Of a DNA stretch of 53,038 bases, positions 31,937 to 52,169 are shown one piece after another. The position numbers and the translations under genes were made by a program. Positions within the stretch are counted from its first letter, which is position 1, and every line of letters begins with the position of its first letter. The notes below the pieces were generated by a model. The model did not search any database and was not told where the DNA came from. It saw only the letters and a list, made by a program, of their open reading frames with translations. Origin of the DNA: Actinomycetota bacterium (GTDB lineage: Bacteria > Actinomycetota > Thermoleophilia > Solirubrobacterales > 70-9); contig JAFDWB010000085.1 of assembly GCA_018268675.1 (NCBI GenBank), forward strand, positions 1-53,038, written 5' to 3'.

Positions 31937-32186
31937 GTGTCCGGTGACGAAGAGGCCACAAGCCCCGCGTCGCTTGGTGAGTTGAGGGCGTCCCGGCACA
32001 CACGACTCACCAAACGACCACGTGGGCCCGGTGAGTTCGCAGAAACCCGCGGACAGCGCGGGGAAGTGCGAACCCACCGCCGGGCACGGGTGCGTTCGCA
32101 CTTATCTACAACTGTCGTGGCCAACTGCGAACGCACCGGGCTGGCGCACGCCAACGATGGGCGCGCCGCCTGATCGGCGCCGCCCA
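31937..32186. repeat. Composite stem-loop repeat, copy 2 (full)
   Basis: The non-coding stretch 31906-32319 carries a chain of inverted repeats. TTGGTGAGT (31974-31982) pairs with ACTCACCAA (32005-32013). GTGAGTTCGCA (32031-32041) pairs with TGCGAACCCAC (32067-32077, one mismatch) around an inner CCCGCG/CGCGGG hairpin. GTGCGTTCGCA (32090-32100) pairs with TGCGAACGCAC (32126-32136). A GC-rich hairpin TGGGCGCGCCG/CGGCGCCGCCCA (32158-32186) closes it. Same order as in copy 3 near 46.6 kb. Confidence 0.8.
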
Positions 32187-39875: not shown

Positions 39876-39881
39876 GACCCC

Positions 39882-39916
39882 ACGACGCTTGTCTTCCATA
39901 CGAAGACAAGCGTCGT
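39882..39916. terminator. Perfect 15-bp hairpin between the two dehydrogenase genes
   Basis: ACGACGCTTGTCTTC (39882-39896) and GAAGACAAGCGTCGT (39902-39916) with loop CATAC. There is no following T-run. It lies between the stop of the first dehydrogenase and the AAGGAAGG of the second, so it could attenuate or stabilise the transcript rather than terminate it fully. Confidence 0.6.
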
Positions 39917-39938
39917 GACGACTGCGAAGGAAGGCACC

Positions 39939-41150
39939 ATGATCAATCTCGAGATACCGAAGAAATACAAGCCGCTGGTCAACCAGGCCAACCAGGTGGC
40001 GACCGAGGTGTTCCGGCCGATCTCGCGCAAATACGACGAGGCCGAGCACGCCTACCCGAAGGAGCTCGACCTGCTGGCGTCGCTGATCGACGGCATGAAC
40101 GAAGGCTCCGACCTCGGCGGCGCGGGCGCGACCGGCGTGCGGCGCTCCTCCAACGGCTCCGACCCGGCGCAGAACCGCAACGGCTCGAACCTCTCCACCG
40201 TGCTCGGCGTCATCGAGCTCTGCTGGGGCGACGTCGGCCTGCTGCTCTCGATGCCGCGCCAGGGGCTCGGCAACTCGGCGATCGCCTCGGTGGCGACCGA
40301 GGAGCAGCTGGAGCGCTACGGCGGCCGCTGGGCGGCGATGGCGATCACCGAGCCCGAAGCGGGCTCCGACTCGGCCGCGATCCGCACCACCGCCGAGCTC
40401 GACGGCGACGAGTATGTCCTCAACGGCGAGAAGATCTTCGTCACCTCGGGCGACCGCGCCGACCTGATCGTCGTCTGGGCCACGCTCGACCGCTCCAAGG
40501 GCCGCGCCGCGATCAAGTCCTTCATCGTCGAGCGCGACAACCCGGGCCTGAAGCTCGACCGCCTGGAGCACAAGCTCGGCATCCGCGCCTCCGATACCGC
40601 CAACTTCACCCTGCAGGACTGCCGCGTGCCGAAAGACGCGCTGCTGGGTGACCCGGAGGTGAAGGAGAAGGGCTTCGCCGGGGTGATGGAAACGTTCGAC
40701 AATACGCGGCCGCTGGTCGCCGCGATGGGCGTCGGGGTGATGCGCGCCGCCCTCGAGGAGACGCGCGCCCAGCTCGCCTCCGCGGGCGTCGAGATCGACT
40801 ACGACACCCCGGTCCTCTCCCAGCCCGCCGCCGCGGCCCGCTTCCTCGAGATGGAGTCCGACTACGAGGCCGCCTGGCTCCTCACCCTGCAGGCCGCCTG
40901 GATGGCCGACAACTCGAAGCCCAACTCCCTCCAGGCCTCGATGGCCAAGGCGAAGGCGGGCCGCACCTGCGTCGAGGTCACCCTCGGCTGCGTCGAGCTC
41001 TGCGGCGCCGTCGGCCTCGGCGAGTCCGAGCTGCTGGAGAAGTGGGCCCGCGACGCCAAGATCCTCGACATCTTCGAGGGGACCCAACAGATCCAGCTCC
41101 TGATCGTCGCGCGGCAGTTGCTCGGGAAGACGTCTAGCGAACTGCGGTAG
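39939..41150 (+). CDS. Acyl-CoA dehydrogenase
   Basis: 403 residues, standard form. MAITEPEAGSDSAAI in the FAD region, NGEKIFVTSGDRADL in the beta domain, and the C-terminal DIFEGTQQIQ with the catalytic Glu expected of straight-chain enzymes. The ATG at 39939 was preferred because of GAAGGAAGG at 39926-39934; a GTG at 39915 is in frame but falls in the hairpin. Oxidises an acyl-CoA in the same pathway as the preceding genes. Not translationally coupled to them. Confidence 0.92.
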   Translation: MINLEIPKKYKPLVNQANQVATEVFRPISRKYDEAEHAYPKELDLLASLIDGMNEGSDLGGAGATGVRRSSNGSDPAQNRNGSNLSTVLGVIELCWGDVGLLLSMPRQGLGNSAIASVATEEQLERYGGRWAAMAITEPEAGSDSAAIRTTAELDGDEYVLNGEKIFVTSGDRADLIVVWATLDRSKGRAAIKSFIVERDNPGLKLDRLEHKLGIRASDTANFTLQDCRVPKDALLGDPEVKEKGFAGVMETFDNTRPLVAAMGVGVMRAALEETRAQLASAGVEIDYDTPVLSQPAAAARFLEMESDYEAAWLLTLQAAWMADNSKPNSLQASMAKAKAGRTCVEVTLGCVELCGAVGLGESELLEKWARDAKILDIFEGTQQIQLLIVARQLLGKTSSELR

Positions 41151-41174
41151 GAGAAGGGACGGGGTTTGCGGGGG

Positions 41175-41277
41175 AGCCCTCTCGGGTCCCCTCCCCAGAA
41201 GCCGTCGCGCAGCTGGGCCTGCCTTAAGGGCTCGGTGCGGGGCACTGGAGCTTCTGGGGAGGGGACCCGAGAGGGCT
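41175..41277. repeat. Structured element B, copy 1 (27-bp perfect stem)
   Basis: Perfect inverted arms of 27 bases, 41175-41201 (starting AGCCCTCTCGGGTCC) and 41251-41277, enclose a 49-base core (41202-41250) starting CCGTCGCGCAGCTGGGC and containing CCTTAAGG. The core recurs, inverted, in copy 2 while the stem sequence there is different. No open frame. It lies in the 375-base gap between the dehydrogenase and the acyl-CoA ligase. Confidence 0.9.
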
Positions 41278-41377
41278 CTACGGACCCTTTCCTAGCTTCG
41301 AGGAGCTATCGGAGTGCCAGGCTGGGCGACGATCCTCGTGTCTCAGGCTCCGTGAGGAGCGAGGAACGATTCGTCAG

Positions 41378-41483
41378 GCCTGTCTCGGTGGCCCCTCCGG
41401 AAAAGCTCCGGTGCCCCGAACCCGAGCCCTTAAGGCAGGCCCAGCTGCGCGACGGCTTTTCCGGACGGGTCACCGAGACAGGC
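41378..41483. repeat. Structured element B, copy 2 (opposite orientation)
   Basis: 28-base arms 41378-41405 (GCCTGTCTCGGTGGCCCC...) and 41456-41483 pair with one G-T and one mismatch. The 50-base core 41406-41455 is the reverse complement of copy 1's core with about 4 differences. The outer stems of the two copies share only partial identity but each is self-complementary. The 100 bases between the copies hold weak CGAGGA/TCCTCG pairings and no gene. Confidence 0.88.
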
Positions 41484-41525
41484 CCCCAGCCCGCGTCACC
41501 CCGTTTTCCGACAGACTGCCGCCTC

Positions 41526-42968
41526 GTGAACATCATCGACGACCTCATGGAGCGCTCGCCGGCTTCGCGGTTGGGGATCGTGGCGGTCGATGCGGAGGGG
41601 CGGCGGCGGGACTGGCACTTCGGGGAACTGGTCGCCACCTCGGCGGGGCTCTCGGGGGCATTCGCGGCGCGGGGGGTCGGGCGCGGGGACGTGGTGATGA
41701 CGCTGGTCGGGAACCGGATCGAGTGGGTGCTGTCGTTGCTCGCGTGCTGGCGGATGGGGGCGGTGGCGCTGCCCTGCAACACGCAGCTGCGGCGCAAGGA
41801 CCTGGAGCTGCGGGTGGCGGCGGCGAAGCCGGTGCTCTGCGTCGGCGAGGAGCGGCTGCTCGCCGAGCTGCCCACCGGGGTGCCGACGATGACGATGGCC
41901 GAGGTCGGCTGCGTCCTCGACGAGGACCGGCCGCAGGAGACGCCCGCGTCGGTGGTCGACCTCGGGCCCGAGGACCCGGCGCTGATCGTCTTCACCTCCG
42001 GCACGACCGGCGACCCGCGCGGCGTCGTCCACGCCTACCGCTACCTGTTCGGCCAGCGGATCCAGGCCGAGCACTGGTTCGGCTCCCGCCCGGGAGAGCT
42101 CGCCTGGTGCACGACCGCCACCGGCTGGTCGAAGTCGGCCCGCAACGTCTTCCTCGCGCCCTGGCTGACCGGCGCCGCCGCGGTGATCCACGACGGGCGC
42201 TTCGACCCGGCGGAGCGCCTCGACTTCGCCGCCGCGCTCGGCGTCAACGTCCTCTGCCAGGCGCCGACCGAGTATCGGATGCTGGCCCGCCGCACGGCGC
42301 TCCGCCCCCTCCCCGCCCTGCGCCGCATGGTGTCCGCGGGCGAGCCGCTCGACCCGGAGACGATCGGCGCCTGGCGCGAGGCGACCGGCCTCGAGCCCGC
42401 CGACGGCTACGGCCAGACCGAGACCGGCCAGGTGACCGCCAACCTCGCCGGCGAGCCGCTCCGCCTCGGCTCGATGGGCAGGCCGCTGCCGGGCATGGAG
42501 GTGCGGATCGAGGACGGGGAGCTCCAACTGCGCGCCGCCTCCTCCCCCACCTTCTTCTCCCGCTACCTCGACGGCGAGCGCTTCGCGGGCGAGTGGTGGC
42601 CGACCGGTGACCTGGTCTCCGAGGACGAGGACGGCTTCCTCTTCTTCGAGGGCCGGGGCGACGACATCATCAGCTCCTCCGGCTACCGGATCGGCCCGAC
42701 CGAGGTCGAGGCCGCCCTCCTCTCCCACCCCGCCGTCGCCGACGCCGCCGCGGTCGCCGCCCCCGACCCCGAACGGGGCGCGGTCGTGCGCGCGATCGTC
42801 GTCCTCCGCGACCGCGAGCCGAGCGACGCCCTCGTCCGCGAGCTCCAGGACCACTGCCGAGAGCAGACCGCCCCCTACAAGGCGCCGCGGATCGTCGAGT
42901 TCGTCGACGCGCTGCCGAAGACCACCAGTGGCAAGGTCCGGCGCGCCCAGCTCCGCGCCGAACGCTGA
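41526..42968 (+). CDS. AMP-forming acyl-CoA synthetase (medium-chain/ACSM-like)
   Basis: 480 residues of the ANL superfamily. ATP-binding VFTSGTTGDPRG, adenylate site DGYGQTETGQ, WWPTGDL hinge region and the catalytic Lys in KTTSGKVRR at the C-terminus. Activates a carboxylic acid to acyl-AMP then acyl-CoA, feeding the neighbouring beta-oxidation-type enzymes. GTG at 41526 chosen because similarity begins at VNIIDDLMERSP; the frame remains open upstream through element B, without homology. No strong ribosome-binding site. Confidence 0.9.
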   Translation: MNIIDDLMERSPASRLGIVAVDAEGRRRDWHFGELVATSAGLSGAFAARGVGRGDVVMTLVGNRIEWVLSLLACWRMGAVALPCNTQLRRKDLELRVAAAKPVLCVGEERLLAELPTGVPTMTMAEVGCVLDEDRPQETPASVVDLGPEDPALIVFTSGTTGDPRGVVHAYRYLFGQRIQAEHWFGSRPGELAWCTTATGWSKSARNVFLAPWLTGAAAVIHDGRFDPAERLDFAAALGVNVLCQAPTEYRMLARRTALRPLPALRRMVSAGEPLDPETIGAWREATGLEPADGYGQTETGQVTANLAGEPLRLGSMGRPLPGMEVRIEDGELQLRAASSPTFFSRYLDGERFAGEWWPTGDLVSEDEDGFLFFEGRGDDIISSSGYRIGPTEVEAALLSHPAVADAAAVAAPDPERGAVVRAIVVLRDREPSDALVRELQDHCREQTAPYKAPRIVEFVDALPKTTSGKVRRAQLRAER

Positions 42969-46514: not shown

Positions 46515-46568
46515 GGCGCGCCCGTCCCACCCTCACTACGGCGGCTATGAGGGCGGGACGGGCGCGCC
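46515..46568. terminator. 21-bp hairpin after DUF255 gene / left border of repeat copy 3
   Basis: Arms 46515-46535 (GGCGCGCCCGTCCC...) and 46548-46568 pair over 21 bases with one mismatch around a 12-base loop. It is 30 bases past the DUF255 stop. It probably terminates that transcript and at the same time forms the left edge of the composite repeat. Confidence 0.65.
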
Positions 46569-46791
46569 TCGTGCGTGTCCGGTGACGGATCCGTCGCAGC
46601 CCCCCGCGTCGTTTGGTGAGTTGAGGGCGCCCTGGCGCACACAACGCAGCAAGCGTCGCGGCGCGGTGAGTTCGCAGAAATCCGCGGGGAAGTGCGAACT
46701 CACCCGTGCCCGGCCGGCCCGGCCCGGTGCGTTCGCACTTATCGACAACTGTTGTGGCCAACTGCGAACGCACCGGCCTGGCGCGGGCCAA
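46569..46791. repeat. Composite stem-loop repeat, copy 3
   Basis: Same order as copy 2. TTTGGTGAGTTGAGGGCG appears (46612-46629) but its right arm has decayed here. GTGAGTTCGCA (46666-46676) pairs perfectly with TGCGAACTCAC (46693-46703). GTGCGTTCGCA (46727-46737) pairs with TGCGAACGCAC (46763-46773) around the ACAACTGTTGT loop. This fills most of the 390-base gap between the DUF255 and PhzF-like genes; no gene is present in it. Confidence 0.8.
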
Positions 46792-46844
46792 GGCGCGGCC
46801 ATCCCCCTCATCACCAGCCGAAGCATGAGGGGGATGGCCGCGCC
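46792..46844. terminator. Perfect 20-bp hairpin after the PhzF-like gene
   Basis: Arms 46792-46811 (GGCGCGGCCATCCCC...) and 46825-46844 are perfectly complementary over 20 bases, loop 13. It lies 30 bases past the stop of the minus-strand PhzF-like gene, so it probably ends the glnA-phzF transcript, and also closes repeat copy 3 on the right. Confidence 0.7.
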
Positions 46845-51151: not shown

Positions 51152-51204
51152 GAGATTCCTTGTCCGCTCACGGCGGTGGGGGGTTTGGTTCATGTCTCTT
51201 TCCG

Positions 51205-51335
51205 GCGCTTACGGGGTTAGCTGACGGGCTCGCGCTGAAAGAGCTGCGCTACGCGGCAGAAGCCGCGACTCGCCCCAACCAATTGGGTCCCCCGCTCTTC
51301 GCGATATGTGGCGAAGATTCAGCGGAAGTTGGCGG
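51205..51335 (-). ncRNA. ydaO-type cyclic-di-AMP riboswitch upstream of RlpA-like gene
   Basis: On the minus strand the leader reads AGAGCGGGGGACCCA, then TTGGGGCGAGTC, later CGAGCCCGTCAGCTAACCCC and GTAAGC. These are the conserved blocks of the ydaO/c-di-AMP aptamer in the right order, 50-180 bases before the start codon. In actinobacteria this switch commonly precedes RlpA-like cell-wall genes and turns them off when c-di-AMP is high. Exact ends are approximate. Confidence 0.9.
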
Positions 51336-51487: not shown

Positions 51488-51515
51488 GGAAGACCCCGCC
51501 GAGACGGGGCCTTCC
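51488..51515 (-). terminator. rnpB terminator
   Basis: GGAAG-A-CCCCG (51488-51498) pairs with CGGGG-C-CTTCC (51505-51515) around a six-base loop, directly after the 3' end of RNase P RNA. Confidence 0.7.
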
Positions 51516-51517
51516 GA

Positions 51518-51883
51518 CAGCGAGCCTGTAAGCCGGATCCTGTCGCGAGCGGACATCTATCTCGCCGGGCCGGAGCCCTGACGGGGCGCCGAGGCGCCCT
51601 GCGACCTACCTGGACCTCGCCGAGCCGGGTCGACGGTCCTGCTTGGCCTTGCACCGGGCGGGGTTTGCCTGGCCGCCGTGTCACCACGACGCCGGTGCGC
51701 TCTTACCGCACCTTTTCACCTTTGCCTGTACGCGGCTCACGTGTGGCCGCGCCATCGGCCGTGTGTTTCTGTGGCACTTTCCCGCGGCTTTCGCCGGGTG
51801 GGCGTTACCCACCGCCCTGCCCTTTGGTGTCCGGACTTTCCTCGAGGCGGATGTCTCCCCGCCCCGCGTCCGCTCGGCTCGCC
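51518..51883 (-). ncRNA. rnpB: RNase P RNA (bacterial type A)
   Basis: Minus-strand RNA of about 366 nt. The 5' part has GGGGAGACATCCGCC, GAGGAAAGTCCGGACACC and GGGCAGGGCGGTGGGTAACGC; the 3' part has GACAGGATCCGGCTTACAGG. These are the universal P4 strands and the 3' conserved block. Terminal helix P1 is CGAGCC (5') with GGCTCG (3'). A TAAAAT -10-like sequence (51890-51895 on the complement) sits six bases before the start. Processes tRNA 5' ends together with RnpA. Short reading frames across it on both strands are spurious. Confidence 0.95.
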
Positions 51884-52037
51884 CGACCGATTTTAGACCG
51901 CTTCGGGGGTCTGATCCAGCGCCCTGTGGCTTCTCGTCCAATGAGAAATCGCGACCGACCCGACGACCCGCTGAGGTGACGAGCCACGTCCGCCTTCGTC
52001 CGAGCGCCCTGATCGTCGCCGTCCCAGTCGGCCGGCT

Positions 52038-52083: not shown

Positions 52084-52169
<86 letters not shown>

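What the first reader, a model, noticed from the sequence alone, without database searches (positions are those of the whole stretch)
41175..41483. Paired stem-loop element with a conserved loop and covarying stems
Two copies lie head to head in one intergenic region. Their roughly 50-base loops are about 90 percent identical when one is inverted, but their 27-28-bp stems differ at many positions while each stays self-complementary (27/27 and 26/28 paired). Simple duplication would not preserve pairing through divergence; compensating change implies selection on a folded RNA or DNA hairpin, or repeated arm-to-arm gene conversion. I do not recognise the core from known riboswitches or REP families. 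It could be a small structured RNA, a protein-binding hairpin or a non-autonomous hairpin transposon.
Basis: partly seen in the sequence, partly recalled or inferred. Interest (0 to 1): 0.78.

Follow-up and report, generated by a model that had tools for sequence, protein, structure and literature searches.

The report
Repeated hairpins at gene ends
The two hairpins belong to a previously undescribed small family of roughly 105-base DNA hairpins that sit just after the stop codons of mostly housekeeping genes in one group of uncultured soil actinobacteria, with a nearly unchanging sequence in the loop and stems that change but stay paired, so they are probably transcript-ending (terminator-like) repeats that spread and are copied within each genome.

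Summary
In detail: hairpin W1 at 41174-41278 (+) has 29/29 paired arms and W2 at 41377-41484 (-) has 28/30, with loops about 92% alike. They are not an isolated pair. A covariance model finds 38 full copies in 9 genomes of two genera of one Solirubrobacterales family, and none in the other genomes among up to 399 sampled from the class. The stem covaries strongly (25 of 28 pairs changed on both sides, 0/500 shuffles), while an 11-base loop core (CCGT-Y-GCGCAGC) is essentially invariant across both genera. The copies lie about 25 nt after the stop codon of a gene that points the same way (28 co-oriented versus 5 anti) and often follow housekeeping genes. At the same gene ends, other species carry other hairpins, some with a similar stem but a different loop. 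Copies within a genome are more alike than copies at the same gene in different species, so the family spreads or is homogenised. G-U pairs are not favoured over A-C, which points to pairing kept at DNA level. No Y1/RAYT transposase exists in the genus and no Rfam family fits. Best reading: REP-like, terminator-type 3'-end hairpin cassettes with an unknown reader of the loop; function and mobility are inferred, not shown.

The parts
41174..41278 (+). hairpin W1: 29-bp perfect stem, 47-nt loop; begins 24 nt after the stop codon of the acyl-CoA dehydrogenase gene
   Evidence: (117 bits)
41377..41484 (-). hairpin W2, inverted partner: 28/30 bp stem, 48-nt loop; ends about 42 nt before the acyl-CoA synthetase start
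   Evidence: (105.9 bits)
41203..41215 (+). invariant loop core CGTCGCGCAGCTG of W1 (family core CCGTYGCGCAGC, which begins at 41202)
41442..41454 (-). the same core in W2
41279..41376 (.). 98-bp spacer between the hairpins; not alike in sequence to the spacers of the two other pairs found (G007, G010)
41153..41173 (+). purine-rich left flank (AAGGG..CGGGGTTTGCGGG) seen, by eye, also at several other copies of this genus
39939..41150 (+). upstream gene: acyl-CoA dehydrogenase
41526..42968 (+). downstream gene: AMP-binding (acyl-CoA synthetase type) enzyme

Best explanation
W1 and W2 belong to a family of 3'-end hairpin cassettes. Each is a roughly 105-nt palindromic unit with a 28-bp stem, a ~50-nt loop and an invariant loop core. 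It sits in the terminator position of a gene and, as RNA, most likely forms the 3' end of the transcript, as a U-tract-less (I-shaped) terminator and exonuclease barrier. The cassettes are copied or converted between sites within a genome, so that different species carry different cassette families at the same gene ends. Pairing of the arms is maintained largely at DNA level: an arm is re-copied from the other arm by template switching, and selection for a strong hairpin weeds out broken ones. The loop core is read by an unknown trans-acting factor, needed either for spreading or for 3'-end function. Shown: family, covariation, placement and orientation, invariant core, within-genome similarity. 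Inferred: termination, template switching, the factor. W2, inverted and in front of the next gene, is probably a second insertion of the same cassette rather than the terminator of a known gene.
For: 38 copies in 9 genomes. Nearest stop codon within 150 nt belongs to a co-oriented gene in 28 cases against 5 (p = 7e-5); over three loop types 44:8 (p = 4e-7); median distance 25 nt. Gap types: 15 convergent, 15 tandem co-oriented, only 1 divergent. Upstream genes are often housekeeping: H+-pyrophosphatase, ilvC, clpX, sucD-type, citrate synthase, leuA, lysS-type, ATP synthase epsilon, ETF-QO. Other hairpins occupy the same gene ends in sister species: acyl-CoA dehydrogenase site, pyrophosphatase and KARI sites. 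Other long hairpins after stops in this window also lack a T tract. Core invariant at 11 positions in at least 37 of 38; core 88%, rest of loop 41%, stem 54% identical between the two genera. Within-genome identity 0.65 against 0.55 between genomes, and copies at orthologous sites only 0.47-0.60. No G-U preference (11 G-U: 17 A-C without the three recurrent mismatch columns) against 20:8 in the c-di-AMP riboswitch; generic 3'-end hairpins 19:21. Template switching as a maker and keeper of hairpin stems is described in PMC8794818; terminators without U trails in PMC8355165.
Against: No RNA-seq or Term-seq data: transcription and termination are not shown. A ~50-nt loop is long for a terminator, and no canonical terminator is called here. 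W2 is not at a gene 3' end on its strand. A terminator needs no invariant loop core. A C.T (or CC/TT) mismatch at fixed columns 27-28/92-93 persists in more than half of the copies, which unlimited arm correction should erase. At the acyl-CoA dehydrogenase site G007 has no hairpin in its ~40-nt gap, so the cassette is dispensable there. The G-U test rests on few cells, and its riboswitch control on a predicted structure.
Confidence: 0.5

Rival explanations
1. A REP/REPIN-like non-autonomous mobile hairpin: the hairpin and the loop core are the recognition site of an unidentified transposase or recombinase, insertion is tolerated (or targeted) at gene 3' ends, and there is no host function.
For: Copies at many non-orthologous sites, more alike within genomes; head-to-head pairs in three genomes; half copies at G000:C78 and C34; site without hairpin in G007; invariant core; a conserved stem mismatch, a feature I recall from hairpins bound by Y1 transposases.
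Against: No Y1 transposase (PF01797) in any of 12 genus genomes, while the control search rings in 5 of 14 known genomes; none in phage or plasmid records; few copies (at most about 10 per genome); strong orientation bias to the upstream gene, which a neutral insertion need not show; no target-site duplication could be identified.
Confidence: 0.27
2. A DNA-level binding site (cruciform or double-stranded), e.g. for a topoisomerase or nucleoid protein that relieves supercoiling behind active genes, as proposed for enterobacterial BIMEs (recalled, not tested).
For: No G-U preference; invariant core; placement behind housekeeping genes and between convergent genes.
Against: Orientation bias to the upstream gene is not expected for a torsional sink; the conserved core is outside the palindrome; no candidate protein identified.
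Confidence: 0.12
3. A structured regulatory RNA or 3'-UTR-derived small RNA whose loop core base-pairs with targets or binds an RNA-binding protein.
For: Strong covariation, invariant single-stranded core, sense orientation to genes.
Against: No G-U preference; no covarying substructure in the loop; no second near-complementary site for the 22-nt core region in the genome at up to 2 mismatches; upstream genes form no single pathway.
Confidence: 0.1

Closest known systems
REP / REPIN elements (GTAG- and CGTC-tagged palindromic repeats)
   Same: Repeated extragenic palindromes, frequent head-to-head pairs, location outside coding sequence near gene ends, within-genome similarity
   Different: About 105 nt with a 28-bp stem and ~50-nt loop instead of a 20-40 bp palindrome (CGTC families: 8-9 bp stem, 4-5 base loop; PMC3733652); conserved core lies in the loop, not as a terminal tag; few copies; no Y1 transposase in the genus
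Intrinsic terminators without U tract (I-shaped hairpins)
   Same: GC-rich hairpin shortly after the stop codon, sense orientation, no T run (PMC8355165)
   Different: Unusually long perfect stem, ~50-nt loop with an invariant core, repeated as a sequence family
Template-switch-maintained hairpins (PMC8794818)
   Same: Arms stay complementary through multi-base paired changes with few wobble intermediates
   Different: There shown for RNA genes; here inferred for a repeat family from pair statistics only
Rfam structured RNA families
   Same: Hairpin with covariation
   Different: No family reaches its gathering score; only generic long-hairpin (miRNA) scores below cut-off

Membership tests
REP/REPIN (RAYT-mobilised) | Short 20-40 bp palindrome with GTAG or CGTC tag at one end | tested here: not met
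   unit ~105 nt, 28-bp stem; CGTC/CGTT occurs at the loop start, not as a terminal tag (PMC3733652)
REP/REPIN (RAYT-mobilised) | RAYT/Y1 transposase in the genome or lineage | tested here: not met
   PF01797 absent from all 12 genus genomes; positive in 5 of 14 control genomes
REP/REPIN (RAYT-mobilised) | Inverted doublets common | tested here: inconclusive
   three full pairs and one half pair among 38 copies
Intrinsic terminator | Strong hairpin within about 80 nt after the stop, sense orientation | tested here: met
   median 25 nt; 28 co versus 5 anti
Intrinsic terminator | U tract after the stem (canonical type) | tested here: not met
   no T run; terminator scan finds none; optional in the I-shaped class
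Intrinsic terminator | Transcript 3' ends at the hairpin | not testable with these tools
   no RNA data
Structured RNA family | Covariation above chance | tested here: met
   25/28 pairs, 0/500 shuffles on the main measures
Structured RNA family | Wobble pairs tolerated over A-C in the transcribed strand | tested here: not met
   11 G-U versus 17 A-C, riboswitch control 20 versus 8, Fisher p 0.03
Known Rfam family | Score above gathering cut-off | tested here: not met

The most novel reading that the evidence does not exclude
A modular system of gene-end hairpin cassettes: one stem type, kept perfect by DNA-templated copying of its arms, carries interchangeable conserved loops (at least CCGTYGCGCAGC, AAAACGCTCCGCC and CCTGACTGG types). 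Each loop would be read by its own factor, and whole cassettes would be exchanged at the same 3' ends between species, giving a swappable terminator/regulator code.
Probability: 0.15. Interest if true: 0.8.

Novelty: new variant of a known kind. Interest (0 to 1): 0.5.

Why it matters
It offers a natural test bed for a long-standing question: how long hairpin stems change sequence without losing pairing. It also warns that strong covariation, normally taken as proof of a functional RNA, can arise at DNA level. The invariant loop core predicts an undiscovered binding factor, and the family gives uncultured Solirubrobacterales a candidate class of strong native terminators.

Tried and rejected
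Rfam match (only sub-threshold miRNA-type long-hairpin scores). REP/RAYT membership. Phage or plasmid origin (no match). A fixed ~310-bp double element: the spacers of the three pairs are similar in length but not alike in sequence. A coding reading of the core (GAGGCCGTTGCGCAG...) was dropped by reasoning, because the copies lie after stop codons and do not keep a frame. Loop substructure: no loop pair stands out in mutual information. Regulon: upstream genes are diverse housekeeping genes. A pattern scan of named genomes was mostly chance matches; only four records (AC_59 two contigs, Chersky.31_16, SZAS-15) passed the covariance model. An early count of 12 G-U against 27 A-C was corrected to 11:17 after seeing that ten A-C cells came from one fixed column. 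Laying the whole genome in the script box was not available.

Full report
OBSERVATION. W1 (41174-41278, +) has perfectly complementary 29-nt arms around a 47-nt loop. W2 (41377-41484, -) has 30-nt arms with two mismatches around a 48-nt loop. The loops are 92% alike when one is inverted. Both lie between an acyl-CoA dehydrogenase gene (39939-41150) and an AMP-binding enzyme gene (41526-42968), both on +. The region folds 12.5 s.d. below shuffles. No Rfam family reaches its cut-off here.

FAMILY. A BLAST-type search found further copies in the same genome. A covariance model of 13 copies (R1) then found matches in 9 of 12 genomes of the genus. Strong matches lie in seven of these, plus two genomes of a second genus of the family, and in none of the rest of 232 genomes of the order. 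A second model (R2) searched 399 genomes of the class and found nothing outside these genera. These large searches used strict filters that can lose weak copies. Contig lengths and coordinates identify three carriers as MAGs AC_59 (Actinobacteria), Chersky.31_16 (Solirubrobacterales) and SZAS-15 (Actinomycetota). The window's genome has 8 full copies plus fragments.

STRUCTURE. On 38 aligned copies (A3) 92.8% of stem cells pair, 25 of 28 pairs show changes on both sides, and the covariation score is 0.685 against 0.193 (s.d. 0.012) in shuffles and at most 0.17 when the partner is slid. A3 was fitted to the stem, but the first, unfitted MAFFT alignment A1 gives the same result (0.596 against 0.186). 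Mutual information finds the stem pairs and no clear loop pair. The loop core CCGT-Y-GCGCAGC is invariant at 11 positions in at least 37 of 38 copies. Between the two genera the core is 88% identical (14 columns), the rest of the loop 41% and the stem 54%. The core helped to find the copies, so its invariance is partly ascertained, but stem-only hairpins of other loop types were also picked up at lower scores. A C.T mismatch recurs at columns 27-28/92-93 in more than half of the copies.

DNA OR RNA PAIRING. If the transcribed RNA alone were selected, G-U should be tolerated more than A-C. Outside three columns with recurrent mismatches I count 11 G-U and 17 A-C cells. The c-di-AMP riboswitch of the same family of genomes gives 20 and 8 (Fisher p = 0.03). 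Other 3'-end hairpins give 19 and 21. This is moderate evidence that complementarity is kept at DNA level, for instance by template switching (PMC8794818), or that both strands matter.

PLACEMENT. With a simple codon-usage gene finder, 15 copies lie in convergent gaps, 15 in tandem gaps co-oriented with the genes, 6 in tandem gaps in the opposite orientation, 1 in a divergent gap and 2 at contig edges. The nearest stop codon within 150 nt belongs to a co-oriented gene in 28 of 33 cases. Two other loop types (G005 and G001) behave alike, 44:8 in all, with two undetermined orientations counted against. The median distance is 25 nt. Upstream genes are mostly housekeeping, with no common pathway.

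SITE HISTORY. Behind the orthologous acyl-CoA dehydrogenase gene most sister species have some hairpin, but of other sequence (G005: its own loop type; G003 and G011: a GGGCCGAAAA type), and G007 has none in a ~40-nt gap. Behind the H+-pyrophosphatase, G000 and G002 carry the W1 type, G001 and G010 carry other long loops, G004 a short-loop hairpin and G009 none. Behind KARI, G010 and G001 carry the W1 type and G005 its own type. Stem arms of the G005, G008 and some G001/G002 hairpins resemble the W1 stem profile beyond shuffles; the G010 arm and one G001 arm do not. Copies within a genome are more alike (0.65) than between genomes (0.55), and copies at orthologous sites are only 0.47-0.60 alike, so spread or conversion within genomes dominates over simple descent.

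PAIRS. Head-to-head pairs occur in G000, G007 and G010 with spacers of 98, 98 and 91 nt that are not convincingly alike in sequence. In G010 each member follows its own convergent gene. In the window and in G007 the second member faces the start of the next gene.

INTERPRETATION. The best-supported reading is a REP-like family of terminator-type 3'-end hairpin cassettes, copied within genomes, with DNA-level upkeep of pairing and an unknown reader of the loop core. Whether the core serves spreading or 3'-end function is open. RAYT-type REP membership fails on size, tag and transposase. Termination, mobility and the factor remain to be tested.

Noticed in passing
window 32026-32141 and 46665-46776: A second intergenic repeat family (GGTGAGTTCGCAGAAA..CGCGG..TGCGAAC..; CGTTCGCACTTATCGACAACTGT..) occurs twice in the window; related sequence appears beside a G003 copy and behind the G011 pyrophosphatase.
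   Followed up: no
L262-L280 (G005): G005 carries about 18 copies of another 3'-end hairpin family with loop AAAACGCTCCGCCTKCGGCTCCGCTTGAGTGTTTTC and gene-proximal flank GGATCAGGGTTTTGCG.
   Followed up: partly
L281-L285 (G001): G001 carries a third hairpin type with a ~70-nt loop (CTTGCCTGACTGGC...GGCACAAAACGTT), also co-oriented with the upstream gene.
   Followed up: partly
L220, L219, L336: A fourth hairpin type (TTGATGGGCCGAAAAC..GTTTTCGGCCC) lies behind genes in G003, G011 and G000.
   Followed up: no
window 46515-46568, 46792-46844, 39881-39917: Perfect or near-perfect 16-21 bp hairpins 6-31 nt after stop codons, without T tracts, probably ordinary terminators of this lineage.
   Followed up: partly
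window 51191-51334, 51514-51885, 52084-52169: c-di-AMP riboswitch, RNase P RNA and a tRNA side by side on the minus strand; c-di-AMP riboswitches occur in all 50 family genomes searched, 2-10 per genome.
   Followed up: no
A3 columns 27-28 / 92-93 (stem of the hairpin family): A C.T or CC/TT mismatch at a fixed place in the stem persists in more than half of the copies across several genomes, unexplained.
   Followed up: partly
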